From Clavelina lepadiformis (Eukaryota > Chordata > Ascidiacea > Aplousobranchia > Clavelinidae): 64,000 nucleotides of DNA. The stretch covers positions 19,220,001-19,284,000 of the forward strand of contig NC_135242.1 in NCBI RefSeq assembly GCF_947623445.1, given 5' to 3'. Below are positions 10,911 through 27,900 of this stretch, one piece after another. The notes beneath the pieces are model-generated. The model did not search any database, was not told the DNA's origin, and saw only the letters and a list, made by a program, of their open reading frames with translations. Position numbers and translations under genes: made by a program. Each line of letters begins with the position of its first letter. Positions within the stretch are counted from its first letter, which is position 1.

Positions 10911-11316
10911 TTTCTTAAATTAATGGTATCAATCAGTTTTTCTCCACCCCAAAAATTTGAGAGTAAACGTTTGACTGGAAAATGTTTATTGTAGCCTAGT
11001 TCCAAAATAGCACTTAGAGTAACCGTTTTTGAGCTTTTAAGCAACTCAGAAAATAAGCATTCGGTGACAGTTTTCGAGCATTTAGCTTACATTTCCACCA
11101 AACTTCTTAATCTTCACGCCAATTTAAAACAAGAAACAAGCGAAAGTTGGTTCTTTGAACGCCAATATATGATTAAGATACAAAGATTTAAAGCTTTGGT
11201 GTTCTTGAGTTTACAATCTAAAATGGCTTTATAGAAGTATAGAATTTTACCGTACTCCTCCAAATCTAAGTAGGCTAAATATCTAGACCCTTTCCGAATT
11301 ACTGCCGCCATTTTTT

Positions 11317-11996
11317 GGGTGGCAAGATTTTTTTGATCGCCTATGCTTAATGGAAATTACCGACCCACTTTAATTTTTTCAGATTATAAACATTCTGATT
11401 ATTGGATTTTAAAGGTTTCGCTCAGGTGGGTTGCATAGCAATTCCTTTACATGATGGAAGAAAATAAATTTGAAAATATGTTGTCTAGTTCTTATTTTAC
11501 AGTGGTTTGAATCCTACACATTGGACTTGTTCGATGGGGTGTCTAGATACATGCTCAGGAAAGCATCTAACATAAAATGTGCAAGAGTTTTTCACATGTT
11601 TTTTTCGCCATGTTACACAGGCTAGGCTAATTTTGGTTTGTATGTGCATGTGTACTAAAATAATCAACTAGAAGTAAATACAAACCGAGTTATTACATTC
11701 AAAAACACCACAGATAAGACATAAACTCTTTTGCATTTTGTGTTGCATGCTACGCTGACCACGTAACGTGACTTCGTATCGAACTAGTTAAGTGTGTAGG
11801 ATTCAAACCACTGTAAAATGAGAACTAGACAACATTTTCTGAAAATTTTTTTATCGCAAAAAGGTATTCATATGTAATTCACCTGAGCGAAATCTTTACA
11901 ATCCACTGCCCAGAATGCTTGTAATTTAAAAAAGAATCAAAGTGGGTCAACAGTTTTCATTTTTAAGTATTGGCGGTCAAAAATATCTTGCCACCC
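11317..11996. mobile_element. fold-back MITE with about 200-bp inverted arms
   Basis: The left arm starts GGGTGGCAAGAT and runs to about 11525. The right arm (about 11798-11996) is its reverse complement with scattered mismatches, ending ATCTTGCCACCC. Blocks that pair include GACCCACTTT, TTTCGCTCAGGTG and ACAGTGGTTTGAATCCTACA. About 270 bp of unrelated sequence separate the arms. No transposase and no clear target duplication, so the superfamily is unknown. Confidence 0.7.
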
Positions 11997-12440
11997 TGAA
12001 AGTAAGTCGAAAAGGTTCTATTAGATCCAAACTAACTTTTTCTAGTTTAATTCTGAACTAAAGTCATCACAATTTGGATGCAATAAATCTATTTCTGATC
12101 AATAGATTTTACCTGGTTTCCATAGAATTGCTCAAATAGGATTTAAATCTTGGGCTCCTGGCCACTGCACATAAATAGGCTAATAAGTTACCTCAAAGTT
12201 CATCTTGAAATAAAAAATTAACTTCAATTAGATCTGGTCTTGTGCCAACTGTCACCAACATAGGAAAGTGCTTCTGGTGGTTGTGCGCTAGAACCGATCA
12301 AAATGCAAAGTCAATGGTCATGTAATGAATTTATGATCGGCTTCTTATGAATTGTTTCGTTTAACTTAACCTCATGTTTTTAATGTAATAGGTTACATTT
12401 ACAGTCAAAGAATCACCTTTTAAAACGTTTTTGTTGCTTT
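11997..12440. other. upstream flank of the epoxide hydrolase-like gene
   Basis: AT-rich non-coding sequence. It ends in TTTTTGTTGCTTTTAG (AG at 12442-12443), a strong 3' splice site 13 bases before the next start codon, consistent with a trans-splice acceptor or a short 5'-UTR intron. Confidence 0.45.
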
Positions 12441-12456: not shown

Positions 12457-14220
12457 ATGTCAGTTGCCGCCTGTAAAATTAAAGCTGTGTTGTTTGATCT
12501 TGGAGGTGTGCTGACACCTCAACCACAAACTTTTATTGCAAAGTATGGAAAAAATTTGCGATTACCGCCAAGATTTCTTCCAGAATTGTTTCTAGAAGGT
12601 GTTCCAAACAATGCATTTTGTAAATTGGAAAGAGGTGAGTACACTTTAGCAGAGTTTAATCAGCATTTTGAAGCAGAGGCTAAAGAAAAGGCAAAGAAAG
12701 AATTTGTCATTTTGCCTTCATTATTTAGTGCCAAATCCCTCATAGCTGGCTTTAACACTGGTGGAGTTGGTTTTGATAAAATTGGTTACACAGATTATCC
12801 TCTTTGCTTTGAAATGCTTCGTGCAAGTACCATTTTACGTAAAAATGGAATTAGCACCTCTCTTGTAACCAATAATTGGATCGATGCTTCTTACGAAAAT
12901 ATTGAAATGCAATCGCAGCTCATGGCAATTTTGAGAACCTACTTTACTGAAGTTGTAGAATCTTCAAGAGTTGGAACCCGTAAACCAGAAAAAAAAATAT
13001 ATGAAATTGCATGTGGTAGGTTAGGAGTAAGTCCCAAAGAGACAGCATTCTTAGATGATATTGGTGCTAATTTGAAGCCCGCCAGTGAAATGGGAATGGC
13101 TTGCATTAAAGTCAAAGATCCAATTGTAGCACTTCGCCAGCTGGAAAGTATAACCGGGATATCTTTACTCAGAGAAGATTTCAATAAGAAACTCGTTTTT
13201 CCTGCACCAAGTCATCCTGCCTCTGTGAGCCATGGATATGTAAATGTGAAACCTGACGTCACCATCCACTATGTTGAAGTAGGTAATGGGCCAGCAGTTA
13301 TTCTTTTGCATGGATTTCCTGACTTCTGGTATGGATGGAGACATCAGTTACCAGCTTTGGCCAATGCGGGTTACCGAGCTATTGCTCTTGATCAACGAGG
13401 CTATGGTGAGTCAACTAAACCACCTAATATTACAGACTACTCACATCCGGAACTGGCTAAAGATGTCCTTAGTCTAATGGACTGTCTTGGTATTGGCATT
13501 GCTACTGTTGTTGGTCATGATTGGGGTGGTTCATTAGCTTGGAATTTAGCTTTGAAATATCCCAATAGGTTTAGAGCAGTGTGTGGTGTGAATACCCCAT
13601 TTTTTCCCATTAACCCCTCACGTAATCCTCTGGTCAGCATGTATGAAAATCCTGGTGTTTTCGATTATCAGCTGTACTTTCAACAGCCAGGCATTGCAGA
13701 GAAAGAATTGGAGAATGATGTTGAGCAAACTATTTCATGCTTTTATCAGGGAGTTGCCCCACAAAGCACTAAAGGAAAAGCTCCTGTTGAAAGTTCATCT
13801 TTAGCTGGTGGGACGCACAATGTCCGTGAACGAGGTGGTATACTAGTTGGCCTTCCAACTAAAATGCCACGTAGCTGCTTTATGACAGAATTTGACCTGG
13901 AATATTATGTTAAGTCTTTTGTCAATAGTGGGTTTAGGGGACCATTAAATTGGTATCGAAATTATGATGCAAATTGGAGATTTCTCGTGCCTGTTGCTCA
14001 TAGAAAGATAATGATGCCTGCTCTCATGGTTACAGCTTCACATGATTTAGTGTTGAAACCAGAATATTCTTATGGCATGGAGAAAATAATACCAAACCTG
14101 CAAAGGTTGCATATTGACAGATGTAGCCACTGGACGTTACATGAAAAACCATATGAATTCAACCGAGGTCTTATTGATTGGCTGGAAACCGTGTATAGTC
14201 CAGGAAAGTCCAAACTATGA
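12457..14220 (+). CDS. EPHX2: bifunctional (soluble) epoxide hydrolase 2-like, 587 aa, single exon
   Basis: Two-domain enzyme: an N-terminal HAD phosphatase fold (residues about 1-235) and a C-terminal alpha/beta epoxide hydrolase (about 250-580) that hydrates epoxy-fatty acids in cytosol or peroxisome. The hydrolase machinery is visible: HGFPD oxyanion loop, nucleophile D355 in GHDWGG, ring-opening tyrosines Y407 (FDYQLYF) and Y500 (LNWYRN), acid D530, and H558 in CSHWTLHEKP. The HAD half keeps nucleophile D14, the LVTNNW and RKPE blocks and FLDDIGANLKP, but its first motif is FDLGGV where human has FDLDGV, so the +2 acid/base aspartate is glycine. Slightly longer than human (555 aa), mainly through a cap-domain insert. 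Uninterrupted coding sequence, whereas the vertebrate gene is split into many exons. Poly(A) signal at 14271. Confidence 0.93.
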   Translation: MSVAACKIKAVLFDLGGVLTPQPQTFIAKYGKNLRLPPRFLPELFLEGVPNNAFCKLERGEYTLAEFNQHFEAEAKEKAKKEFVILPSLFSAKSLIAGFNTGGVGFDKIGYTDYPLCFEMLRASTILRKNGISTSLVTNNWIDASYENIEMQSQLMAILRTYFTEVVESSRVGTRKPEKKIYEIACGRLGVSPKETAFLDDIGANLKPASEMGMACIKVKDPIVALRQLESITGISLLREDFNKKLVFPAPSHPASVSHGYVNVKPDVTIHYVEVGNGPAVILLHGFPDFWYGWRHQLPALANAGYRAIALDQRGYGESTKPPNITDYSHPELAKDVLSLMDCLGIGIATVVGHDWGGSLAWNLALKYPNRFRAVCGVNTPFFPINPSRNPLVSMYENPGVFDYQLYFQQPGIAEKELENDVEQTISCFYQGVAPQSTKGKAPVESSSLAGGTHNVRERGGILVGLPTKMPRSCFMTEFDLEYYVKSFVNSGFRGPLNWYRNYDANWRFLVPVAHRKIMMPALMVTASHDLVLKPEYSYGMEKIIPNLQRLHIDRCSHWTLHEKPYEFNRGLIDWLETVYSPGKSKL

Positions 14221-14962
14221 ATGATCTTGACAATATTTCAATTTTCAATGAATATATGTGATAATTTATTAATAAAAGTATTATTGAATAGTTGTTGCAA
14301 TTGTTTTTTTATTTCCATGCCTTAATGTTTTTGATTAGAGATGCCTATGATTTTGATTGTTTGATTAACATAGCTTTAGATGATAACATGCGTGTACTAA
14401 TAGAACCTTTTTTAATTTATTGTGCAATCTTGTTCAGAAAAACTGTTTTCTTACTATTACTGCTACTATTATTATTACTGTAAAATTATGGTATTGTTGC
14501 AAAAGTTGTTCCTCTGATTGATTAGAGATTCATATTGAGATGAGCTGCAGTGATTAAGCTAGATGCTTTGTGTTCAGTGCTACAGCCTTGCATTCCCTAT
14601 CATTAGTTATATATATAAATGTGTATATATAACTTATATATAAATCACTAAATCTTTGGTATTGTTTATGAAACTAGGTGTATTCCCACAACAAATATAT
14701 ATATAAGCAAAATCCAATACTACATAAATCTTGTTGGTGCTAATTAAGTTACAAATGCCTGTATTCCAAGCAAATATGCATTAGCTAACAAACAATTTGT
14801 GAAAATACACTTACGCGTGATTTGTTCTTTGCAGGGAATATTTTTTCTAAGATAAATTATAGAAGTGCATTTTTTTAGATTTGTAAGATACTTTTGAAAA
14901 GGAAATTGTATCCATGTAAGGTTCACTGACAAGAATTCGTATGATTTACACTTGTTTTGCAG
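14221..14962. other. spacer between EPHX2-like and NELFB, with AT-rich palindromes
   Basis: AATAAA at 14271-14276 ends the upstream gene. Runs of TATATA with self-complementary arms occupy about 14605-14705. The spacer ends in CTTGTTTTGCAG (AG at 14961-14962), a probable trans-splice acceptor 30 bases before the NELFB start. Confidence 0.5.
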
Positions 14963-14992
14963 TAAGTGTGAAATTTGTTGTTAAACTGGAAC

Positions 14993-16837
14993 ATGGCTCA
15001 ATCTTTAGAAGATATGGGCATTGCAGGAAAATCATTTCTTCAAGAAGCCCTCACCAATACAAACGATCCCCTTGGTGCCATTGAAGAATTTCAACAGGAA
15101 AATAGCATTCTGCTACCTTCCCTACAGCCAGCTCTTCCTCTATTAGATTTGCATGATTTGAAAAGATCAAACTTCCATTGTTCAGTCTTTGAAGTGCTGC
15201 GCGATCGCCTTCTCACCCGAATTGCAGAAATATCGAAAAGCAATGAACCAGACTCTATGAAAAAACTGGAAGCCATTCTTGATAAAAGTTTTCCCTTGAA
15301 TAAAATTGACACACTTTTACCTGTGTCAATGTGCTTGCTAAAACATCTACCAAAAGTGCCAGAACGATATATTACAGCTCTTACTAAGGACCAGCACTTG
15401 TATAAGTCTTGTCCAATGGAAGTTAAACGGCAGATATGGCAAAAAAATCAAACATTATTTGGTGATGAAGTGCTGCCATTACTGACACAGTACATAAAGG
15501 AAAAGGAAGCTGCATTACTGACAAATGACTGTGCGACGTCAAAAAACTTTTTCACTGCTTCCCCAAAGTCTCGTCGACAAGCACATGTTGTAAAGGTCCT
15601 AACGGAAATGATAGGAAAAAATATTCGTTTATATGATATGGTGTTGCAGTTTTTACGTACTTTATTTTTGAAGACTCATAATGTTCATTACTGTTCATTG
15701 AGAGCTGAAATACTTATGTCACTCCACGACCTTGAAGTAACAGAAGTTTGTTCTGTCGACCCATGTTATAAATTTACATGGTGTTTAGATGCATGCATCA
15801 GAGAACACTTCGTTGATGTGAAGAGGGCACGAGAACTACAGGGGTTTCTTGACAGTGTAAGGAAAGGTCATGAACAAGTACTTGGTGACCTTTCTATGAT
15901 ATTATGTGACCCTTTTGCAGTAAATACAATGCTTTGCAGTGTCATGAAAATTATTCATGATGCAACGTTGAAAGAAACTTTGCCTAGACACAACACTGAA
16001 TTGTCACTCTTGATACGAATGCTTGCTTTAGGTCAGTCAGCTTGGGACATAATTAACAAACAAGTTTTCAAAGAGCCACGTGTGGACAGTGAGATCACAT
16101 CAAAGTTTATTCCTTCATTGATGTCTCTTTCATTGCATGACCACATTGTTACTACAAGAGCCAAAGTGAAAAACTTAACTAAACTTACCTCAGACAGTGT
16201 AGATGTTGATCATGATCATGAACTTGTGATTGCTGACGAACCAGCTAAAAAGAAGATGAAGATTACAAAAAAAGGAACCACTGAAGATTTGTCCACTAAA
16301 GAAGAAAATACCACATCGTTACTTCACTGCATTTCGAAGTTTATGTCGAAAGATCAGCTGTCTCGAATTCTTGTTATGTGGTATACTTTGCAGCTAATCA
16401 AGTCCAAGCGAAAGTCGCAGCTACTAGAAATCTTACCTATAATAGGCAAATCCTACAAAGAATGTGCTTCCGATAGCGTGTATGTCCACGTACTTACAGC
16501 AAACTTTACTACCAGTGCTGATCTTCTTTCAGATGATGCCTTATGCAAAAGCTTGTTCAATAAATTTCTTTTTACCAAAAGTTTTAAAGAAATTCAGCAC
16601 AAACAGCTGTTGCAGTTGGTAACAAACACAAGTCATAAAATTCCTTCTGTCAGACTTAAGGCACTAATGACACGTTTGGAGCCCAAGTCCAAAAAGGCAT
16701 CAGAACAATTAGTGGACATGTTTGAGAAACTTAAAGCAATATCAACTGCCATAGAAATGACTCCTTCTGAGGTGGAAAAGCCAAAATCACCCAGTTCATC
16801 TGCTTTGCTGGGTGTACCTACACCTGCAGCATTATAA
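14993..16837 (+). CDS. NELFB: negative elongation factor B (NELF-B/COBRA1), 614 aa, single exon
   Basis: Subunit of the nuclear NELF complex, which with DSIF holds RNA polymerase II in promoter-proximal pause. Similarity to human NELF-B runs over nearly the whole length: LLPSLQPALPLLDLH, EVKRQIWQKNQTLFGDEV, LYDMVLQFLRTLFLKT, DPCYKFTWCLDACI, RARELQGFLDSV and EQVLGDLSMILCDPFA. The start is ATG at 14993 (MAQSLEDMG, cf. human MFAGLQDLG); it lies 30 bases after a CAG acceptor, so the in-frame TTG upstream was not used. A lysine-rich linker (AKKKMKITKKG) around residue 420 is longer than in human. No intron, although the human gene has many. No canonical AATAAA is obvious before the next gene. Confidence 0.95.
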   Translation: MAQSLEDMGIAGKSFLQEALTNTNDPLGAIEEFQQENSILLPSLQPALPLLDLHDLKRSNFHCSVFEVLRDRLLTRIAEISKSNEPDSMKKLEAILDKSFPLNKIDTLLPVSMCLLKHLPKVPERYITALTKDQHLYKSCPMEVKRQIWQKNQTLFGDEVLPLLTQYIKEKEAALLTNDCATSKNFFTASPKSRRQAHVVKVLTEMIGKNIRLYDMVLQFLRTLFLKTHNVHYCSLRAEILMSLHDLEVTEVCSVDPCYKFTWCLDACIREHFVDVKRARELQGFLDSVRKGHEQVLGDLSMILCDPFAVNTMLCSVMKIIHDATLKETLPRHNTELSLLIRMLALGQSAWDIINKQVFKEPRVDSEITSKFIPSLMSLSLHDHIVTTRAKVKNLTKLTSDSVDVDHDHELVIADEPAKKKMKITKKGTTEDLSTKEENTTSLLHCISKFMSKDQLSRILVMWYTLQLIKSKRKSQLLEILPIIGKSYKECASDSVYVHVLTANFTTSADLLSDDALCKSLFNKFLFTKSFKEIQHKQLLQLVTNTSHKIPSVRLKALMTRLEPKSKKASEQLVDMFEKLKAISTAIEMTPSEVEKPKSPSSSALLGVPTPAAL

Positions 16838-17210
16838 TACCGTTGGGTGGTTTTGTTTGTGTTATTGTGCATAATGTGAATTTCTTAAATTGCACAATCT
16901 AATTTCTTGTAGTCTGTTTACAATTTTTAGAAGACAGTTGTTGCTTGTTTTAATGGTAAATTTTGCAGTGTTTGGTTTACTTGGTTCATAAAACGAAGCT
17001 CTTAGTGCAAATCTTGATGTTGAATACTGGTTTGACTTGAAATTGTTTATGATTTTTAAAAGTCTAATAATATTGTATTTTTCAACAACATTTTTCTTTA
17101 TGTTTAGATCCAACCAAAATATTGCTGAATAGGTTTCATAGAATGCTTATCTCAGAATCTGCAAGTTTGTGTTATCATTGAAATCTTGCAAAACTTTTTA
17201 TTGACGGAAG
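16838..17210. other. spacer between NELFB and CEP55-like gene
   Basis: 380 bases, AT-rich, with no canonical AATAAA. It ends in ACTTTTTATTGACGGAAG seven bases before the next ATG. Short spacing and absent poly(A) signal would fit a polycistronic pair, but this is inference. Confidence 0.4.
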
Positions 17211-17216
17211 TATATT

Positions 17217-18224
17217 ATGAGCCTTTCAAGACGAGGATCATTAAACAAAGCATGTCCCGGATCAAATGAAAACATCACTGAGCTGAAAACTCAGCTGAAA
17301 GATGCACTTGAAAAAAACTCTCGCTGGCAAGCATACAACTGCCAACGAGAAGAATATGTAAAAAATTTGCTTGCCAAATATAATCAAACCCGCACAGAGT
17401 TACAAAGCACTCGTAACAAGTTGGAAAAGATAACAAGCAACCCAGATCAACTTGCAGCAGAGCAACGACGTTACTTTGACAAGTTGCTGGTTGAAGCACG
17501 GCTAGAACTTGAGAACCAACGCAATGAAACTTTGCATGCCAATACACAACTTTCAATCATAAAGGAAAAATATGAAAATGACATTCGAAACTTGGAAAAT
17601 GCAATAGAAAACTGGAGGCACAAATATGGAAAAATTTGTGTAAGATTGGCTACCTTAAATGCAAAAAATGATGAGTCTAACCATAAATCAAACACTCAGC
17701 AAAGAATATCAGGTAATAGAAATCTTAAAGTACAGTTCTATGAGGATGATGAACTTAAAAAGGTAGTGGTGGAAAACGAACTGAATATTATTAAGGAAAA
17801 GGTTGAAGAACTTCAACGAAAAGTTGACCATCGTGACACAAAAGCTTTTCGAAGATCTTTTGATAATCTTAGGCGAGAAGAAGTTCAATCCAGTAAGTTA
17901 CGTGTACACACCGTAAATAAAAACCAGACATCTGACAAAGCAACGAAAAACAGTCAAGCATTATTCCAAAATTGTGTGTCAGACACCATTCCTGAACATA
18001 AGTCTTCAAAACCTAAATCTGTTGAATCTAAGGTTGATTTGACATTAGGCAGATCAGACTTAAAAACTCGTAGGTCAAAACCTAGAAAATATCGCTCACT
18101 GCCTGCTAGTACATATTCTGAAGCTACAAATGAAGACCTTTTGTACTGCCCAAGTTGTGGCAAAAGGTATCCAATTTCAGACCATGCCTCTTTGCTTGAC
18201 CACATTGATATTTGTGGAGATTAA
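17217..18224 (+). CDS. CEP55: CEP55-like midbody coiled-coil protein, 335 aa, single exon
   Basis: Human CEP55 recruits ALIX and ESCRT-I to the midbody for cytokinetic abscission. Here residues 22-53 (TQLKDALEKN..RWQAYNCQREEYVKNLLAK) match the ESCRT/ALIX-binding region; W37 and Y40 align with human W184 and Y187, which contact the ALIX/TSG101 peptide. A coiled coil covers about 55-145 and again about 180-215, followed by a Lys/Ser-rich linker. The C-terminal finger has C311, C314, H329 and C333, matching the last 25 residues of human CEP55. Human CEP55 has 464 residues, so about 140 N-terminal coiled-coil residues are absent here. The reading frame is uninterrupted. Identification rests on the two conserved ends. 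Confidence 0.82.
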   Translation: MSLSRRGSLNKACPGSNENITELKTQLKDALEKNSRWQAYNCQREEYVKNLLAKYNQTRTELQSTRNKLEKITSNPDQLAAEQRRYFDKLLVEARLELENQRNETLHANTQLSIIKEKYENDIRNLENAIENWRHKYGKICVRLATLNAKNDESNHKSNTQQRISGNRNLKVQFYEDDELKKVVVENELNIIKEKVEELQRKVDHRDTKAFRRSFDNLRREEVQSSKLRVHTVNKNQTSDKATKNSQALFQNCVSDTIPEHKSSKPKSVESKVDLTLGRSDLKTRRSKPRKYRSLPASTYSEATNEDLLYCPSCGKRYPISDHASLLDHIDICGD

Positions 18225-19079
18225 GTTCAGAATGACAGAAATATTTGTAAAACAATGAACATGTTCACAAGTCTGATGACAAAAACAATCATAATTGCAC
18301 TATTTCTGTTGTGTTTGTTTTTTGATGAGTTTCATTATAAATAACTTATACTATGGCTTCTATAACTCCCAAAGTCCCAGTTTTTAGTATATATAATGCT
18401 TTTTGTAAAACAATATTTTATTCTAATTAACAGTATGTCTCACATGGTCTTACATAATGTGTGGCGTTCTTTATATGTTATATACTAATTAAAAATAGTT
18501 ATTGTATTTACTTTGAACAGCGTACGACTCCATCAGCGTTTAGACCATCTCAAAGTTTCATTTTACGAGTATTTCCTTTACGTTTATGTGTTGTCAAACT
18601 TCGTTGTTACATTCATAATTTTATATTTTGTTGCACCATTTTATTTTTATAGTCACCATTCAAATTTTAAAAAAGTATTACTATTGAAGTATGTCTGTCT
18701 TTTGTATGTCGCCACTGTTATAGCAGTTTTTGCTGGCACAAAGTTTATACTTAAATAGTAATATCAAATAATTAACTGATTTTAATGGTTGAATTTTTCA
18801 CACTGCATAGGTATGGTGTTTATAACCTAGCTGTAATGATATTTACGTTAACTTTACTATGTCCTACTTGGAATCTGTTTTAAAAGTTGTTGCTGGCCTG
18901 TTGTTTTTTCTAATCTGTAGAAACACCCCCACTGCTGAGAAATGTTTCCGTTACAGCACGTGTTTGAATACCACAATATTCTAAAAGAATCGTATTGTAA
19001 ATTTACAACTCACCAGTAAGCATTTTTGTGCATGATGTATGTTTGCTGGCCACTAAATCATCTGCTTTATTTTCTTCAG
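18225..19079. other. spacer between CEP55-like gene and UBLCP1
   Basis: AT-rich non-coding sequence with no clear canonical poly(A) signal. It ends in TTTATTTTCTTCAG (AG at 19078-19079), 12 bases before the UBLCP1 start: a strong acceptor. Confidence 0.45.
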
Positions 19080-19091
19080 CAATACATCAGA

Positions 19092-20066
19092 ATGAATTCA
19101 TCATTCACAATTACAGTAAAATGGAATGGTAAAAACTATGATCTTGATAGTATAGACACTGATTTGATAGTGGAAGATTTAAAACGTCTAATAGAAAACA
19201 TCACAGGTGTTCGTCCTGAAAGGCAAAAATTGCTTAACCTAAAGGCCAAAGGCAAACCATTAACAGACAGTTTGAAACTTTGTGAAACGAACATAAAGCC
19301 AAAGATGAAAATTATGATGATGGGAACCGTAGAAGAAGACCTAAAAGATGTTCTTGAGCCTCCAACTGATATTGGAGAAGTGGTCAATGATTTCGACATA
19401 GATGATGATGTGGAAATAAAGCTTGAAAACAGAGAGGAACATTTGGCAAAAATTGATAAACGAATACAAAGCTACGAGATGAAAAAATTGAACGAGCCTC
19501 GTCATGGAAAAAAGCTTCTAGTTTTAGATGTGGATTATACTTTATTTGATCATAGATCAAATGCTGAAAAGGCAAGTGAACTAATGCGACCATATTTGCA
19601 TGAATTTCTGACCAATGCTTATGAAAGTTATGACATCGTCATATGGTCTGCAACCAGCATGAAGTGGATCGAAGTGAAAATGAAAGAATTGGGTGTAACT
19701 ACTAACCCTAACTATAAGATATGTTTCTTTATGGATCATGGTGCTATGATAACTGTTCACACACCCACATATGGTGTTGTTGACACAAAACCTTTGAAAG
19801 TTATATGGGGTAAATATCCAGACCTTTACTCTGCAGACAATACAGTCATGTTTGATGATTTAAGACGTAATTTTCTGATGAATCCACAGTCTGGTTTGAA
19901 AATTAAACCATTTAAAAATGCACATATAAATCGTGAAAGTGACTGTGAACTTCGTAAATTGTCACAGTACTTGAGTGACATAGCTGATCTGGAAAGCTTT
20001 AAACTCTTGAATCATAAACACTGGGAACACTTTAGAAGGAAAAAAGCTAAAAGTTTACAGGATTAA
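19092..20066 (+). CDS. UBLCP1: ubiquitin-like domain-containing CTD phosphatase 1, 324 aa, single exon
   Basis: Nuclear FCP/SCP-type HAD phosphatase that binds and dephosphorylates the 26S proteasome. Residues 5-80 form the ubiquitin-like domain ([12 protein letters not shown], then [16 protein letters not shown]). The phosphatase domain carries DVDYTLFD with nucleophile D146 and acid D148, then [13 protein letters not shown] and [13 protein letters not shown]. Length equals the human protein (318 aa) within a few residues. ATG 19092 is chosen because it follows the CAG acceptor by 12 bases and starts the ubiquitin-like fold; the longer frame upstream reads through the acceptor. The TAA is overlapped by AATAAA (20065-20070), implying a very short 3' UTR. 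Confidence 0.95.
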
Positions 20067-20070
20067 TAAA
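20065..20070 (+). terminator. poly(A) signal overlapping the UBLCP1 stop codon
   Basis: The sequence GATTAATAAAATGG contains stop TAA at 20064-20066 and AATAAA at 20065-20070. A T/G-rich stretch (TTGTACTTTTATTTTGCTTTT) follows at about 20090, as expected for the downstream element. Confidence 0.6.
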
Positions 20071-20640
20071 ATGGTTAACTTTAAAATTTGTACTTTTATT
20101 TTGCTTTTATTGCCCGATATACCTGAAACTTATACAGCATTCTTAGTCTTCGCCGAGTTATTTTGATTTTCTTTGTGTAAATGTCAGATAATTGTCACTT
20201 AAATGTTTGTGACCAGAATGTCTGTAAAATCTAAAGAGGCAGCACATATGTCACCATGTGCAGCGCAGTGTTTTGCACACATTTATTGATGATGGATTTT
20301 TAATATAAACAGTTGCTATTACTTGCCACTTGTAACAGGAAGTTGTTTATTGTAACACAGCGTGTGGTTTGACATACGTATGTGCAGCATTTTTGTTTAT
20401 ACTAAACTGATTTCTGCCTCATAGTGCCTACGCTTGGTAATGTCATAAATTTTATGCTGTCCAAATTTTGGGTTTTTCAGTAGCAAATTATATGAATTAG
20501 TTTTGAAACTACTATACGGTACTATTATTACGATAATAAAGTTCAAATATAATTTGTAAAATGCAATATCATTGTAATCCTTTAGGTAATAACATTGTCA
20601 TAAATCTGTAAAGCACATATCCAAGGTTTTGAAGATATAT
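20071..20640. other. spacer between UBLCP1 and CEP20
   Basis: Non-coding. Contains an AATAAA at about 20536 and possible acceptors AATCCTTTAG (20585) and GGTTTTGAAG (20634) before the CEP20 ATG. Confidence 0.4.
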
Positions 20641-20650
20641 TTCGTACGAA

Positions 20651-21016
20651 ATGGCCACTGTCGGCGCATTGAAACAAGCATTAACAGAAACACTGGACAA
20701 TAAAGGAGTTTTGAATGAACTAAAAGCACGGATTCGTGCTGAGGTGTTTCATGCAATTGAAGATCCTACAACTGTAAAACCACAACTGAGCAATGAAAAT
20801 CTTCTCATCAACGAACTTATCCGAGAATACTTGATATTTAACAACTACAAATATACAGACTCCGTATTATTAGCTGAAACAGGCCAAAGTGGGGTGCAGC
20901 TTGAAAGAAGTTTTTTATGTCAAGAACTGAAGGTGCAAGATTCAGATGAATCAGCCAAGTTGCCATTGTTGTACAGCCTGTTAAATAACTTTGTTGAAAG
21001 AAAGAATTGCAGTTGA
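20651..21016 (+). CDS. CEP20: centrosomal protein CEP20 (FOPNL/FOR20), 121 aa, single exon
   Basis: Centriolar-satellite and basal-body protein of the FOP/OFD1 family, required for ciliogenesis in vertebrates and ciliates. MATVGALKQALTETLDNKGVL, read as two blocks (MATVGALKQAL, ETLDNKGVL), opens like human MATVAELK. LKARIRAEVFHAIED and the LisH motif ENLLINELIREYL (about residues 50-75) are nearly identical to human; YKYTDSVLLAETGQ and LPLLYSLL follow. Human CEP20 has 174 residues; this one stops right after the conserved core, so the charged C-terminal tail is missing. No intron. Confidence 0.92.
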   Translation: MATVGALKQALTETLDNKGVLNELKARIRAEVFHAIEDPTTVKPQLSNENLLINELIREYLIFNNYKYTDSVLLAETGQSGVQLERSFLCQELKVQDSDESAKLPLLYSLLNNFVERKNCS

Positions 21017-22326
21017 AAAATAGCCATATTATAAATATTTTATGGCTCACCAATTCTCCCATTTTGTATACCAACTCGAAAAACTTTTTCATATATTGTA
21101 TTAGAATGAAAGAGGAGTAAAATATGTCATGAGTAACTTGAAAATCAAAGAGTAAATTTATTTTTTATAATGCCATTTTTGCATAGGAATGGTGATGTAT
21201 GAAAAAATCTTTTGTAAGAAAGTGGTTACCCATAAGCATTGATTCCATATTTAATGTACTGTACTTCTAAGATGTGGGCTAGTGAAAATATGATTTACTT
21301 GGTTTAATATCGGAGTGATTCCAATGTTCCGTTATTTGGAATATTTTTTATTTGTTAAATTGTCTAAATTAAAACTCCTTAACTGCTTTTAAGCAAAACG
21401 CAGACATTCAGGTATAAGCTGGTTTGGTTCTTGCTACAAACTTGTGATAATTTTGCAAAAAAAAACACAAAAACAGTGTTCATTTATTTTAGATTATATG
21501 GCAAGGATAATGGACATCCCTAGTTAAATAGCAGCCTGGAGTTGAAATTACTCCAACATTTTGTATAATCAGTAGGGATACTGTGAGAAATATCTGCAAA
21601 TCTTAGTTATTTTGTTGCGAGGTTACCATAGTTTAATGACTGCAGTGAAATTCCCTCACATCTTACGGCCTCCTTACAGTGACACAATGGTGAAGGTCAA
21701 AATCAAATCAAAATAACATGTGATTGAAAATTGTTAAACATGAGTTGTTAATAATGGTGATGTGTGTATTAACTTTGTTTCTAACAATCAGTGAAATATG
21801 TGCATCTACAGTAGATATATATCCAATATTTTGTCGCCAATCACTGCATAGATGAATTAATGAGTCTTAGTGCAACTTTTTGTGGCATTTTTTACAGCTT
21901 TTAGTCTAGCATTGACATTCTTCAAATTAAACGTCTTTTTTCTACGTGAATCAATGAGTAATGTTTTGTATCAAAATAAATCGAAACACAATAACAATGA
22001 ATCAGTCAAAGTACAGCTTAAGATTTTGTAGTCAACTAAGTAAAAATTCAACATGTTGGTAAAGTTTGATGCAAATGCTCTCTAGATTGTTTTGCTGTGG
22101 CTAAATTTTTCAATTTGTCATCATTTTGACTCTAAATGGAGTTCTGTCATTAAAATTTTTAGCCATCGACTGACCATTATAAGGTCATTATTAAAATTGT
22201 GTGATAAAGGAGATATTTAAATTGAGCATAGTACAGGTATGTACATTACGAAGTTTATATTGAAACTTTATAGTTACTTATCTCTGCTACTTCATTTATT
22301 CGTATGGATTATGTACTTTTGTTGTA
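21017..22326. other. intergenic, no recognised gene
   Basis: 1.3 kb of AT-rich sequence with no open frame worth calling. It ends in TGTACTTTTGTTGTAG (AG at 22326-22327), a probable 3' splice site for the next gene. Confidence 0.4.
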
Positions 22327-22419
22327 GGCATTGTGTACACAATAGATGGCACTGTACATAGATTAGATACTTATTGTACATGTGTTTCATGTGTCCTGTC
22401 TTATTCAATACTGCAACTA

Positions 22420-23394
22420 ATGCAAAACATGGAAGTTGGTAATGAGTCAAAATTTCATGAATCAGTTGTTGATAATCCAGCTGAATGCTCTATTTCAGCT
22501 GATGATTCCAGTGTTCTTGGAACAGCAATAAAGCTTGGTCCAGCTGCTTGCAGCACACCACAGCACCACAATGTCAATTTTAACCTGAAAGAATTGATGA
22601 GTCGAAAACGGTTGCCGGACAGCTTAGACTTTAAGTTAAATAAAGCTAAAGTTGCAAGGTTATCTGAGGTCTCAGTTGACGAAAAAATATGTAGTGATCC
22701 TTTTGAACCCAATGGTCAATACAATCTTACTGCCTATGATGTAGGTGGAACTGAAAATGATAAAAATACTGCATGTTTTGCTAAAACTGTCGCAAGTTCC
22801 AGTGCGAATGGAGACCAAAATCAGATAGCTATCTCTTTTTTTGCATCAAATAATAATAACATTTTCAGTGATGATGAGACTTTACTCAATTCTCTGTCTG
22901 ATGACGATCAGGATGAAGATGATGAAACGTATTTATATTTACTTGACTCTCCTGAGCCAAGTGAAAATTCTATAGAAAGCTCAAGTGATAGTACCACCTG
23001 TAATACTTCATGCTGTGACACACTACAGGAAACTACAGTTTCAGAGGATTCTACACTCATTCAGTCAAATGGCATAACTCCGAGGGGTCAGACTTTGCAA
23101 GGTTTTTTGAAGCAACATTTAAATAACCAACACATACCATATCCACAGTGGCTGGAGAGTGCTAAACGTCGATGTACTGCTACCGAGTTAATTGAATTAA
23201 TGAACTCAGTTTATGAACCACATTCCGATGTGTATCCTCAGGACCTTTCTACATATAATTATAGGGATGTTATGAAAGCATGTGGAAGATTTCCAGATGA
23301 TGTCCACAGTGGGTGCAAAGTCGATGACTTCTACCACATCGTGCCTGATGTGCATAACAAGAGGTTTTCAACTTTGCATCAACTTACTCGTTAA
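22420..23394 (+). CDS. unrecognised acidic protein, about 324 aa
   Basis: I do not recognise this protein. The frame is open from the AG acceptor at 22327; the first ATG in frame is 22420 (MQNMEVGNE), and an upstream coding exon cannot be excluded. Residues about 60-80 are basic (LMSRKRLPDS then KLNKAKVARL). A very acidic stretch near the middle (SDDDQDEDDETYLYLLDSPE) is followed by Ser/Thr-rich sequence. The last 100 residues look folded: TLQGFLKQHL, PYPQWLESAKRRCTATELIE and VMKACGRFPDDVHSG. Layout (acidic patch, low complexity, helical C-terminus) would suit a nuclear regulator, but no function is claimed. Codon use and the long open frame support a real gene. Confidence 0.75.
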   Translation: MQNMEVGNESKFHESVVDNPAECSISADDSSVLGTAIKLGPAACSTPQHHNVNFNLKELMSRKRLPDSLDFKLNKAKVARLSEVSVDEKICSDPFEPNGQYNLTAYDVGGTENDKNTACFAKTVASSSANGDQNQIAISFFASNNNNIFSDDETLLNSLSDDDQDEDDETYLYLLDSPEPSENSIESSSDSTTCNTSCCDTLQETTVSEDSTLIQSNGITPRGQTLQGFLKQHLNNQHIPYPQWLESAKRRCTATELIELMNSVYEPHSDVYPQDLSTYNYRDVMKACGRFPDDVHSGCKVDDFYHIVPDVHNKRFSTLHQLTR

Positions 23395-24257
23395 TTGGTT
23401 AATGATGATAAACCTATTTTTTAAATGAATTTTCAACTTTGACATGTATGATTAGCTCTGGATTGAAATTAATCTTAAAACTTGATAACGCAACAAATGC
23501 AAAGTAAGTATGTTCAAATATACAATTACAATGTTAATATTTTTACCTATCAGTATGTCTTAAACAAACATTGCATACTTGTCATTGGGTTAATTAATTA
23601 TTGATGGGGTTAAATCAAGAAAGGATTGAAATAGGAACAATATTAGTAATTTTGTATGCTTAAATTTTTTTTTTCGTTTCATGTTTTATGCTTTCAATGT
23701 CTTTCAGAGTGTAAACAAAAACTATAACAAAGCTTACCCAACAACTTTCAATGAACATTTAAGAAGAGCTATTTAATTTCAATGAAACTTCACCCTTTAA
23801 ATATATACGCATGACAAGGCAATATGCATGCATGACAACTACTTTTGGTCTTAGCAAAGTGTAATAAAATTACCAACATGTTTTTAGGACTATTACACCA
23901 TTAATTTTGATTCCTAGTTACCGTTATCATTACCTAAAAATCGTGTATATTTTGATATAATATATGTCATATTCTGTGCATTTATCTACAAGGTGTGTCC
24001 CTGCTTTAAAACAGTGTGACTTCCTTATTGTTTTCTTTTCAGGGATCAGTATGTCTTAATACTGAATAGTTCAGAGGATTTGTCATGGACTTACTTAATA
24101 AATTCTTTCTTTCAGCATTTGTTTTCTGCTTCAGGAGTTCGTTTTTTGACATTTCATTTGAAACTTATTTGTTTTAAAGCAATAGTCTACTTGTTACTAT
24201 CCCAAAACACTGCGCATGAAATTTTTGTTTCAGGGCAGTCTTTAAATTTTTGTTTAG
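23395..24257. other. spacer upstream of ADTRP-like gene
   Basis: AT-rich. Two good acceptors, TTGTTTTCTTTTCAG (about 24042) and AATTTTTGTTTAG (24257), precede the next ATG; the latter is 9 bases upstream of it. Confidence 0.4.
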
Positions 24258-24266
24258 TATAATAAC

Positions 24267-24941
24267 ATGGTGTCAAAGCTGGTGTTAAGTTACCATGCTT
24301 TTGCATGGTTAGAAGCAACATTTGCGTTGGTATTATATCATTACTTAATACTGACACAAATAAAGCAGACATATGGGCGTCAGTGGAAGTATCTCACTTA
24401 CATCAATCTAGTCGTTCAGTTCATTTGTTTTACTCTATGTATCGTAAAGGATCTTACTCATCGCTGGAATTTAAAAGATTTATCAAGAAAAATCAAATGT
24501 GTCAGAGATGTCATTCATGCTTCAATTGGCATACCCTGTGCCCTAACTGTTCTTTTTTCATTTTGGAGTATATATCTAATTGATCGTGAGTTAATTTATC
24601 CCAAAGTATTAGATAACATCTTGCCCCAATGGGCGAATCATGTTTGGCATTCAGCTATTATTCTCGCGGTTGGTGAAGTGTTACTTGACCACATCCAATA
24701 CCCAAAACGGCATATTGGAATAGGTATCTGTTTTTTGTTTGGGTTAGTCTACTTGGTTTGGGTGCAGTGTGTATATTATGCGAGTGGGATTTCTGTATAC
24801 CCCTTTTTAAAACAACTGAAGGGACTGCCTTTTGCTCTATTTGTTACGTTGGAGCTGATATTCTCTTGGATGTGCTATTCAGCAGGGGAAGCTCTCAGTG
24901 GGATTGGAAGTCTCAAACTTCAACAGAAGAAAGTTACTTGA
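24267..24941 (+). CDS. ADTRP/AIG1 family FAHFA hydrolase, 224 aa, multi-pass membrane protein, single exon
   Basis: Family of six-helix membrane threonine hydrolases; human AIG1 and ADTRP cleave fatty-acid esters of hydroxy fatty acids. Key blocks are present: RQWKYLTYINL with catalytic threonine T44, RDLIYPKVLD-type block DRELIYPKVLD, and NHVWHSAII with catalytic histidine H128. Hydrophobic segments at about 8-30, 43-62, 86-106, 125-145, 150-172 and 185-208 agree with the fold. Length is close to human ADTRP (230 aa). Assignment to AIG1 versus ADTRP is not possible by eye. Last of the run of seven unsplit genes. Confidence 0.9.
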   Translation: MVSKLVLSYHAFAWLEATFALVLYHYLILTQIKQTYGRQWKYLTYINLVVQFICFTLCIVKDLTHRWNLKDLSRKIKCVRDVIHASIGIPCALTVLFSFWSIYLIDRELIYPKVLDNILPQWANHVWHSAIILAVGEVLLDHIQYPKRHIGIGICFLFGLVYLVWVQCVYYASGISVYPFLKQLKGLPFALFVTLELIFSWMCYSAGEALSGIGSLKLQQKKVT

Positions 24942-27900
24942 AAATATCATTTTTAAGAGTGTAAAAACTTCTAACGATTAATGCAAAAGGCATTATATAA
25001 TTTATATTCTTCAGATGTTAGTTAATGTTATGATTTTCGATACTTATTTAGATTTTTTATCATTGATTAGTAATTATGAACTTTCTTATCTTTAATCTTT
25101 ATATGTATTATGTTCATGGGAACATCTAAGTATATCATTTTAAAATTATGATATTAATCGTCATAATTTTTGTGCACCTGGGGTCCTAATACAGCGCCCT
25201 CACCTCAGTCACCAAAACGGGATTTCGATGCGAAGGATGCTGTTGTTTTTCGCGAGATTTTATTTTAGCCGTCCATTTGTACATTAGCAATTCCTTGAAA
25301 GCATGTCTCTTTCGTTCCTCTCTGTTTGTTTTGATTTAATTATTGATCTTTTCGTGATTTTGTTACTGTGATTTAGTTAATTTTTTTCGCTAACGTAAGC
25401 ACTTTTTAGGTTCGGTGGCCATACTAACCTTTCATTGTAATAGCGTAGGCTCAGTATACCCCCGTGCAATTAATACCTTGCACGTTTTAAGGCTACAGGC
25501 TTGATTGCTTTTTCTGTTTGTTTGTCAGCGTATTTCTTGTTATGTTTCCGTATGACAAGGTTTGCAACATTCTTTCAGCTGCCCACAGTCAATGGCGAAA
25601 AATTACCAACACGATACTTTTTAACGGATATGTAGTTTTGCGTTCAAATGTCATGTCACTGAGTATTAATGACGTTGTGACAATAAAAGGATATTATGGT
25701 ATACAAATCGAAAAGAATTCTTATTTTCAGACGTCTGCTTTACGAAACATGACGTCATTATAATAGATAACATTGTGTACCGATAATTAACTTTCTGTTT
25801 TCCGTTTTAAGTCGTGACATAAATATTTCGCCTGCCTATCTTGTGTGAGTTATACACAGCTGTTTAATGCATTTCTTCTATGATCAACGCTGTAACATGT
25901 ACGTCTTTATGCTGTTGCTGTGCCAATGTTATGTTTAAATGTAATTGTTCAATGTCATCAGTATATACAGTTGTCATTCCTACGCAACAATTTTTTAATT
26001 CTATTTGGATAAGTTCAGTGTTAAGATAGACAACTTTATTGTCATCTTCACAAGGTGACAAGGACTTTGGTCCTATAATATAGCAGTGGAAAACAAGTCA
26101 TTATAATGTTGATCACTGCCTATTGAAGCTAGTCATCAGACAATAAGCCGTCAAGGTGAACAATTAAATCTGTGGGTGAGAAAAGCAGACAACGACCTCA
26201 TGAGATTCATATATCATCACCCGCAATAAACATTTCAACAAGTACTTATTGTAGTGAAGTGAGTCAACCTCTCAAGTTCAGGTACCATATACCCACCTTC
26301 CGTTACAATGTAATATTACTTCCCTACATGATATAAATTTTTATATTACTGATGATTCTTAATCTACGTTCATGATCACGATGCTTGATAATCAGTTTTT
26401 AATTCTAGTCAAACCCTTTGGAAACTGGCAAGCTTTTTCCTGCGTTTGGCATAAATAAGGAAGCCTAAGTACAAAAGATTAATCAACATCAATTAAGAGG
26501 TTATGATATGTTTGTTACCATGCTTGGTAAGAGACGGCATTTTGTGTTTATCTGGCTTACCAAAAACGATAAAAGACTGACGGAAGTGCAATTTCCTCTT
26601 AAACCATATCTTACTCTCCATATGCAAATTAGTAGAGCCAAATAACGTTGCATCTGCATTGCAATTCACAGGCAATCATGTCTTGAAAGCTTTCCTTTAT
26701 GTGGTTATTTCACCATTATTGTTCATTAAATCATTAAAAACTAATATACAGTAACGACGTTTTTGGTTCATTTTATATCGTATTGAGTACAGTTCCGGTC
26801 GAACCTCGTTATAACGTCCAGTGGGGGACAGGAAGTGTATATGCTGAAATTTTGCAATTTCCAGGAAAATGTGAAACATTCCACGTAATGTTTAAAAAAG
26901 TGTGTAAGACCAATCAAAGGCCAGCATGGCTTGATTTCTAGTGCGGGGATTAACCTAGCAAATGACGGGTTAAAAACTTCCAATTCGCAAATTGTAGGTG
27001 AAAATTGACATTTTGGCTCAAAATTGCAGTCTTGAATTTAAAATTCTATTGCAAGATTTGAGAATTTAAAAAAAAACGGAAACTTAAAGGAAAATGTCGT
27101 ACGCGTAGCGCTTATGGCCACACACTCATTCGATTTTTGTTGGAAGTTGTAGTTGTGCACAAACATTTTATCCTTATCGGATATTGTGCTCACAATTTTT
27201 TAAAGTTTTTTTGAGTACCGAAATGGTCTTTTAAATTTCCCAAACGGTCTCTTAAAATTTATACTATTTAATTTTTACAGAAAATTAATCTTTAAAAGTG
27301 ACATGGTCTAAAAAGTTTTGAGGCGGTCGCCAAAGTCAAACCTTAAGAAAGCACTGTGTAGGAGTATAACAGCTTTTTAAATACAGTATATTATGCTGTG
27401 AGAAAGATACACATTACTTTGCAAAAAACATATTCCGTCTATGTGGTCAGTGATATCATATCATAAGTTCTTTGATTTGTAGATTTAAGTTAATCACCAT
27501 TTAAGTTTTGTGACCAGGTCAACCGCTCATTGCTATGATTTCACCGCAGATCTATCTATCAATCAGTCTTCAGAAAAATCACTCGTTTGACATCTGTACT
27601 TTATTTATTATTTGTAATTTATTTTGTTATTTTTAAATAAACTTTATACAATAAATTTTATATCTTTGCTTTTTTATTTTTTTAAAAATACTTTTATTTT
27701 AAATCAATTTACTATATGCAAATTAAAAAAATCTATTTTTTTAGACAAGTGTTTTAGTTTTTTTGGACAACCACTGCAGAGAACTTCATATTATATTAAT
27801 TACTGACAAGTTATGAACCTTACACTGGTTTTTCCTCGGAATATAAAATTGCAACAATTCGGTACTGTATAATAAAGCAATTTCAACTTTCCTCAAGTTA

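What the first reader, a model, noticed from the sequence alone, without database searches (positions are those of the whole stretch)
12457..24941. Seven consecutive same-strand genes without introns, flanked by intron-rich genes
The EPHX2-like, NELFB, CEP55-like, UBLCP1, CEP20, unknown acidic and ADTRP-like genes each read through in one exon. The flanking genes (aldehyde oxidase-like, M6PR, AURKAIP1-like, RTF2, C12orf56-like, K2P) have 3 to 10 exons. Vertebrate orthologues of most of the seven are multi-exon. Such clustering is unlikely under independent intron loss. Possible causes are gene conversion or insertion from a processed, perhaps polycistronic, RNA, or selection in an operon-like unit. 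From memory, tunicate operons are reported to be enriched in single-exon genes, but spacers here (about 0.4-1.4 kb) are longer than typical operon gaps.
Basis: partly seen in the sequence, partly recalled or inferred. Interest (0 to 1): 0.72.

Follow-up and report, generated by a model that had tools for sequence, protein, structure and literature searches.

The report
Tunicate cluster of seven intronless genes
Seven neighbouring sea-squirt genes on one strand have no introns in their coding regions, most likely because they form an operon-like group of a kind already known in tunicates, in a genome that carries genes for cutting shared transcripts apart.

Summary
Seven + strand genes (EPHX2, NELFB, CEP55-like, UBLCP1, CEP20, an unknown acidic protein, ADTRP-like) are each one open frame between 12457 and 24941. 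Five flanking genes that I identified with Pfam are split. It carries a tandem array with the exact Ciona 16-base spliced leader followed by a donor site, so SL trans-splicing very probably operates.

Insertion of a processed copy beside a surviving parent is not supported: no gene has an intron-bearing near-copy in the genome, and no spliced-leader remnant was found in the cluster. The ADTRP paralogue on another chromosome (44% identical) is also intronless, so that gene probably lost its introns long ago.

The run exceeds chance at the overall single-exon rate reported for Ciona. Acceptor-like sites before the start codons, T-rich spacers that resemble introns, and single-strand order suggest one operon-like unit, or two. 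Abutting cistrons, which define Ciona operons, were not shown; RNA is needed. Single-exon enrichment in tunicate operons is already published for Ciona. One-step intron loss by a polycistronic cDNA is possible but has no positive support.

The parts
12457..14220 (+). EPHX2-like bifunctional epoxide hydrolase, 587 aa, one exon
   Evidence: no near copy, only a 40% match of 67 residues on C1
14993..16837 (+). NELFB (COBRA1), 614 aa, one exon
   Evidence: only match in the genome
17217..18224 (+). CEP55-like, EABR domain, 335 aa, one exon
   Evidence: only match in the genome
19092..20066 (+). UBLCP1, ubiquitin-like plus NIF phosphatase, 324 aa, one exon
   Evidence: only match in the genome as whole-protein query
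20651..21016 (+). CEP20 (FOPNL), 121 aa, one exon
   Evidence: only match in the genome
22420..23394 (+). unknown acidic protein, 324 aa, one exon
   Evidence: only match in the genome
24267..24941 (+). ADTRP/AIG1-like, 224 aa, one exon; intronless 44% paralogue on C9
12424..12443 (+). candidate 3' splice (SL acceptor) site before EPHX2, score 6.1; sites scoring 6.8 (ending 12391) and 6.3 (12450) also exist
14943..14962 (+). candidate acceptor before NELFB, score 7.4, 30 bases before ATG
17088..17107 (+). candidate acceptor before CEP55, score 8.2; one ATG between it and the start codon
19060..19079 (+). candidate acceptor before UBLCP1, score 10.6, 12 bases before ATG
   Evidence: also used by the gene finder in the stricter setting
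20566..20585 (+). candidate acceptor before CEP20, score 6.2; AATAAA begins 50 bases upstream
22308..22327 (+). candidate acceptor before the unknown gene, score 8.5; five ATGs before 22432
   Evidence: also used
24115..24134 (+). best candidate acceptor before ADTRP, score 10.4, 132 bases before ATG, one ATG between; AATAAA begins 37 bases upstream (24097). A nearer site, score 8.0, ends at 24233
21017..22419 (+). longest spacer (1403 bases), lowest T excess (0.052): possible break between two units

Best explanation
The cluster is an operon-like group of unrelated genes in an ascidian that uses spliced-leader trans-splicing. One polycistronic unit, or two (EPHX2 to CEP20, and unknown plus ADTRP), is transcribed on the + strand and cut into mRNAs by adding the 16-base SL at acceptors before the ATGs. 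The introns were lost in place, probably gene by gene over a long time, as in the published enrichment of single-exon genes in Ciona operons. Shown: one-exon frames, one strand, no intron-bearing near-copies, an SL gene array in the genome. Inferred: co-transcription, trans-splicing of these genes, and the route and timing of intron loss.
For: The exact Ciona SL 16-mer has 836 + 647 exact matches against 0 + 0 for the reversed control; of the 100 places listed, 62 lie in a mostly 745-base-spaced array on C6. In the array repeats that I read it is followed by GTAAGT and AGCTTTTG, close to the Ciona Sm motif AGCUUUGG. Acceptor-like sites are enriched before the seven ATGs as a group (Fisher p 0.002; reverse-complement control 0.84, reversed control 0.96). 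All six spacers have T over A on the sense strand (0.052-0.222, pooled 0.108), like sense introns (0.094) and unlike 81 intergenic windows (mean 0.017; p 0.0001). The excess is near zero in the 4 kb before EPHX2 and falls off about 1 kb after ADTRP. Internal spacers are 0.4-1.4 kb, against about 5.7 kb to the modelled end of the left neighbour and 3.7 kb to the modelled start of the right one. Ciona operons hold 38% single-exon genes, others 15%.
Against: No RNA data. A poly(A) signal within 60 bases before a candidate acceptor was seen in two of six spacers (CEP20, ADTRP), which chance could give, so abutting cistrons are not shown. The acceptor scores of EPHX2, NELFB and CEP20 are unremarkable alone (p 0.27, 0.18, 0.38), and upstream ATGs lie between acceptor and start in CEP55 (1), the unknown gene (5) and ADTRP (1). 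Many monocistronic Ciona genes are also trans-spliced, so acceptors do not prove an operon. Separate transcripts with long 3' UTRs would give the same T excess; a same-strand pair 70 kb away shows it too (0.197), and single non-coding windows elsewhere reach 0.1. The acceptor matrix was generic, and the intergenic windows come from my own rough gene models.
Confidence: 0.5

Rival explanations
1. Not an operon: seven separately transcribed single-exon genes lie side by side by chance or because intronless housekeeping genes gather in the same germline-active regions.
For: Spacers are long enough for promoters. An abutting poly(A)/acceptor layout was not shown. Single-exon genes occur nearby too: NUDT21, LRAT-like and YOD1-like within 10 kb, about 70 kb upstream.
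Against: A run of seven is rare at 15-19% (expected 0.02-0.11 in the genome), rarer still on one strand. T excess runs through the spacers.
Confidence: 0.33
2. En-bloc intron loss: a polycistronic pre-mRNA, cis-spliced but not yet cut, was reverse transcribed and recombined with its own locus, removing introns from several genes in one event.
For: Would explain contiguity, one strand, retained spacers, lack of duplicates and lack of SL remnants in one step. Intron loss by recombination of a reverse-transcribed mRNA is discussed for Oikopleura (passage in PMC4122922).
Against: The ADTRP paralogue at 44% identity is also intronless, so for that gene the loss is probably older than the duplication. 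A cDNA of many kilobases is demanding. No positive evidence was found.
Confidence: 0.12
3. Insertion of processed retrocopies, single or polycistronic, at a new site.
For: One-exon frames.
Against: No intron-bearing parental copy for any of seven. No SL remnant with up to 3 mismatches between 12 and 25 kb; the nearest match (25998, one mismatch) belongs to a dispersed repeat. Independent retrogenes would not be expected to line up on one strand. Short target-site duplications were not tested: one search looked only for direct repeats of 25 bases or more and found none.
Confidence: 0.03

Closest known systems
Ciona intestinalis operons (Satou et al. 2008, PMC2760879; section 10 and passages seen)
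   Same: Same SL 16-mer in the genome, same-strand unrelated genes, strong single-exon bias
   Different: Ciona cistrons abut without intergenic DNA and the 2008 maximum is six genes; here abutment is not shown and all seven are single-exon
Ciona and Oikopleura operons in the SLOPPR paper (PMC7986045; passages) and a tunicate review (PMC4122922; passages)
   Same: A single SL used for operonic and monocistronic genes; operons of up to seven genes (Ciona) and up to 11 genes (review) reported
   Different: Median intercistronic distance 1 bp (Ciona) and 31 bp (Oikopleura) between annotated gene ends; mRNA ends are unknown here
Retrogenes and cDNA-mediated intron loss (general knowledge; one passage in PMC4122922)
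   Same: Complete loss of coding introns
   Different: No parent copy and no SL remnant found; contiguous one-strand group

Membership tests
Tunicate SL-resolved operon | Organism has SL RNA genes | tested here: met
   exact Ciona SL in a tandem array, donor GTAAGT, Sm-like AGCTTTTG; expression not tested
Tunicate SL-resolved operon | Genes adjacent and on the same strand | tested here: met
   7 of 7 on +
Tunicate SL-resolved operon | Trans-splice acceptor before downstream genes | tested here: inconclusive
   enriched as a group (p 0.002), weak for EPHX2, NELFB and CEP20
Tunicate SL-resolved operon | Cistrons abut (under 60-100 bp between mRNA ends) | tested here: inconclusive
   mRNA ends unknown; poly(A) signal shortly before a candidate acceptor in two of six spacers
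Tunicate SL-resolved operon | Polycistronic pre-mRNA and SL on mRNAs | not testable with these tools
   needs RNA reads
Tunicate SL-resolved operon | Over-representation of single-exon genes (Ciona; a tendency, not a definition) | tested here: met
   7 of 7 coding regions; Ciona rates
Processed retrogene insertion | Intron-bearing parent elsewhere in the genome | tested here: not met
Processed retrogene insertion | SL remnant at the 5' end of the copy | tested here: not met
   5 window matches with up to 3 mismatches, none between 12 and 25 kb (chance mean 2.4)
Processed retrogene insertion | Short target-site duplications | not tested
   one search covers direct repeats of 25 bases or more only
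En-bloc cDNA intron loss | Loss in all genes at one node, with intron-bearing orthologues in sister species | not testable with these tools
   no other tunicate genome held

The most novel reading that the evidence does not exclude
A polycistronic pre-mRNA acted as one template for cDNA-mediated intron removal, so that trans-splicing operons lose the introns of several genes in a single event. That would explain mechanistically why tunicate operons are rich in single-exon genes.
Probability: 0.12. Interest if true: 0.75.

Novelty: new member of a known kind. Interest (0 to 1): 0.38.

Why it matters
The 2008 Ciona paper says that the significance of the many single-exon genes in operons, above all the first ones, is not clear. 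A seven-gene, all single-exon cluster in what is very probably another ascidian order is a clear test case: comparing when each gene lost its introns across ascidians would separate en-bloc loss from gene-by-gene loss. The exact conservation of the SL and its gene array is also useful for annotating that group.

Tried and rejected
Retro-insertion was rejected: no parents, no SL remnants. Contamination or horizontal transfer was judged unlikely: GC3 is a uniform 0.29-0.36, NELFB had no relative in the prokaryote and viral contig scans (only NELFB was tried), and neighbouring animal genes are split by introns as usual. A gene fusion or hidden cis-intron was considered because my home-made gene finder joined neighbours: CEP55 with UBLCP1 and the unknown gene with ADTRP in the strict run, and in looser runs NELFB to UBLCP1 and CEP20 to ADTRP, with introns placed inside CEP20 and ADTRP. 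I take this as the model using acceptor-like sites across stop codons; complete domains and intact frames argue for separate one-exon genes, and RNA would settle it. A first gene-finder run over-predicted and was dropped. The SL match at 25998 is a dispersed repeat. Family-based base rates (NIF: 1 of 5 places besides UBLCP1 in one frame; Abhydrolase_1: 1 of about 15 places besides EPHX2, with 18 of 36 candidates scored) are rough, since partial matches may reflect divergence and not introns. Paper searches for Clavelina with trans-splicing (0 papers), UBLCP1 with operon (1 paper, about chicken liver), intronless genes with ascidian and retroposition (3 papers, listing only, none on ascidian clusters by title) gave nothing; subscription papers are not covered.
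Full report
What is there. Seven open frames on the + strand, 12457-24941, each run from ATG to stop without interruption. Pfam and PDB searches name them EPHX2, NELFB, CEP55-like (EABR), UBLCP1, CEP20, an unknown acidic protein and ADTRP/AIG1-like. EPHX2 and UBLCP1 align nearly end to end with solved relatives in one stretch, so these are whole genes and not large exons. That human orthologues of the named genes are multi-exon is recalled, not tested. Of the flanking genes, five were recognised by Pfam and are split over reading frames: aldehyde oxidase, M6PR, RTF2, DUF4551 and a K2P-type channel. The AURKAIP1-like gene was not recognised and a second try failed.

Where it comes from. The window is C3:19220001-19284000 of a 209.06-Mb genome in 95 contigs. 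C3 is 25,734,561, C6 20,771,506 and C9 15,725,681 bases, against 25.74, 20.77 and 15.73 Mb for chromosomes 3, 6 and 9 of Clavelina lepadiformis kaClaLepa1.1, whose published span is 210.1 Mb in 102 scaffolds (PMC10884593, passages). This is an identification by size only, and totals differ slightly.

More than chance? In 254 kb around the cluster, 19 Met-ORFs of 200 aa or more were counted after dropping one 277-aa ORF that overlaps a longer one; CEP20 (121 aa) is too short to count. Six of 19 start within 11.85 kb on one strand (p 0.0004 same strand, 0.017 any strand; window length chosen after seeing the data). Several of the other 13 look like transposase fragments (recalled, not tested), and three are single-exon genes lying close together: NUDT21, LRAT-like and YOD1-like. 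Using Ciona single-exon rates, runs of seven are expected 0.02-0.11 times per genome at 15-19% and 10.8 times at the operon rate of 38%, before asking for one strand. The finding was also picked by eye, which weakens any p-value.

Duplicates. Searching the whole genome with each protein (E up to 0.001, best candidates only) found no second match for NELFB, UBLCP1, CEP20, CEP55 or the unknown gene. EPHX2 had only one more match, 67 residues at 40%. ADTRP had one paralogue, 44% identical over residues 6-212, on C9. I fetched it: from its Met it is a single open frame of 222 aa, with the family domain over 21-212. Retro-insertion beside a surviving parent is therefore not supported, and ADTRP was probably intronless before an old duplication; two separate losses, or retroposition of one copy, are also possible.

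Trans-splicing machinery. The exact 16-base Ciona spliced leader occurs 836 + 647 times in this genome, against 0 + 0 for the reversed pattern; of the 100 places listed, 62 are in an array on C6 with mostly 745-base spacing, and 38 are scattered. Of 20 scattered loci looked at, some belong to dispersed repeats. The array repeats that I read go SL, then GTAAGT, then AGCTTTTG; Ciona has the Sm motif AGCUUUGG in a 46-nt RNA (passage). SL trans-splicing thus very probably operates here.

Operon evidence. Acceptor-like sites are enriched in the 150 bases before the seven ATGs (Fisher p 0.002; controls 0.84 and 0.96), strongest for UBLCP1 and ADTRP (p 0.014 and 0.019), weak for EPHX2, NELFB and CEP20 (0.27, 0.18, 0.38). 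Upstream ATGs lie between acceptor and start in three of seven. The gene finder used the UBLCP1 and unknown-gene acceptors too, but with the same matrix, so this is not independent. All six spacers have T over A on the sense strand (0.052-0.222, pooled 0.108), equal to sense introns (0.094) and above 81 intergenic windows (mean 0.017; p 0.0001). The excess is near zero in the 4 kb before EPHX2 and falls off about 25950. The dip in the 1403-base CEP20 spacer may separate two units. Against this, a poly(A) signal lies 37-50 bases before a candidate acceptor in only two of six spacers (ADTRP, CEP20), and separate transcripts with long UTRs would look alike.

Verdict. The best reading is an operon-like single-exon cluster of the published tunicate kind, with introns lost in place. 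Membership as a Ciona-type operon is not established, because abutment and co-transcription were not shown. Single-exon enrichment in operons is published for Ciona (PMC2760879, section 10); operons without intergenic DNA are restated for Ciona (PMC6836712, passage); operons of up to seven genes are reported for Ciona (PMC7986045, passages) and of up to 11 genes in a tunicate review (PMC4122922, passages). Length and intronlessness are therefore not new in kind. What is of interest is that all seven lack coding introns and none has an intron-bearing near-copy, which makes en-bloc versus gene-by-gene intron loss testable by comparison.

Noticed in passing
L021 (C6:12165000-12167400); array listed from C6:12139467 past 12206191: Tandem array, mostly 745-base spacing, carrying the exact Ciona spliced leader followed by GTAAGT and an Sm-like AGCTTTTG; no paper with both Clavelina and trans-splicing was found in the held library.
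   Followed up: partly
L022:4374-5078, L023:705-1436, L023:3395-4291: Three more single-exon genes (NUDT21, LRAT-like, YOD1-like) within 10 kb, about 70 kb upstream; the same-strand pair has a T-rich 1.96-kb spacer, so intronless genes may cluster more generally here.
   Followed up: partly
L042 (C9:14647801-14649800): ADTRP/AIG1 paralogue, also single-exon, 44% identical to the window copy.
   Followed up: yes
window 25950-26090; L007, L010, L015, L018: Dispersed repeat that contains the SL 16-mer or, in the window, a one-mismatch version of it.
   Followed up: partly
L001, L002, L019, L020: Another repeated element with the exact SL 16-mer not followed by a donor site; could be chance or a captured SL.
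   Followed up: no
L017:1501-1533: Copy of the first 33 bases of the SL RNA repeat unit at C3:25093574, away from the array: likely an SL RNA pseudogene.
   Followed up: no
window 11312-12001: Long imperfect inverted repeat (arms 39-130 bases, 78-85% complementary) just upstream of EPHX2, like a hairpin transposable element.
   Followed up: no
window 18138-18221: The CEP55-like protein ends in a Cys-Cys-His-His-Cys zinc-finger-like motif; that human CEP55 lacks it is recalled, not tested.
   Followed up: no
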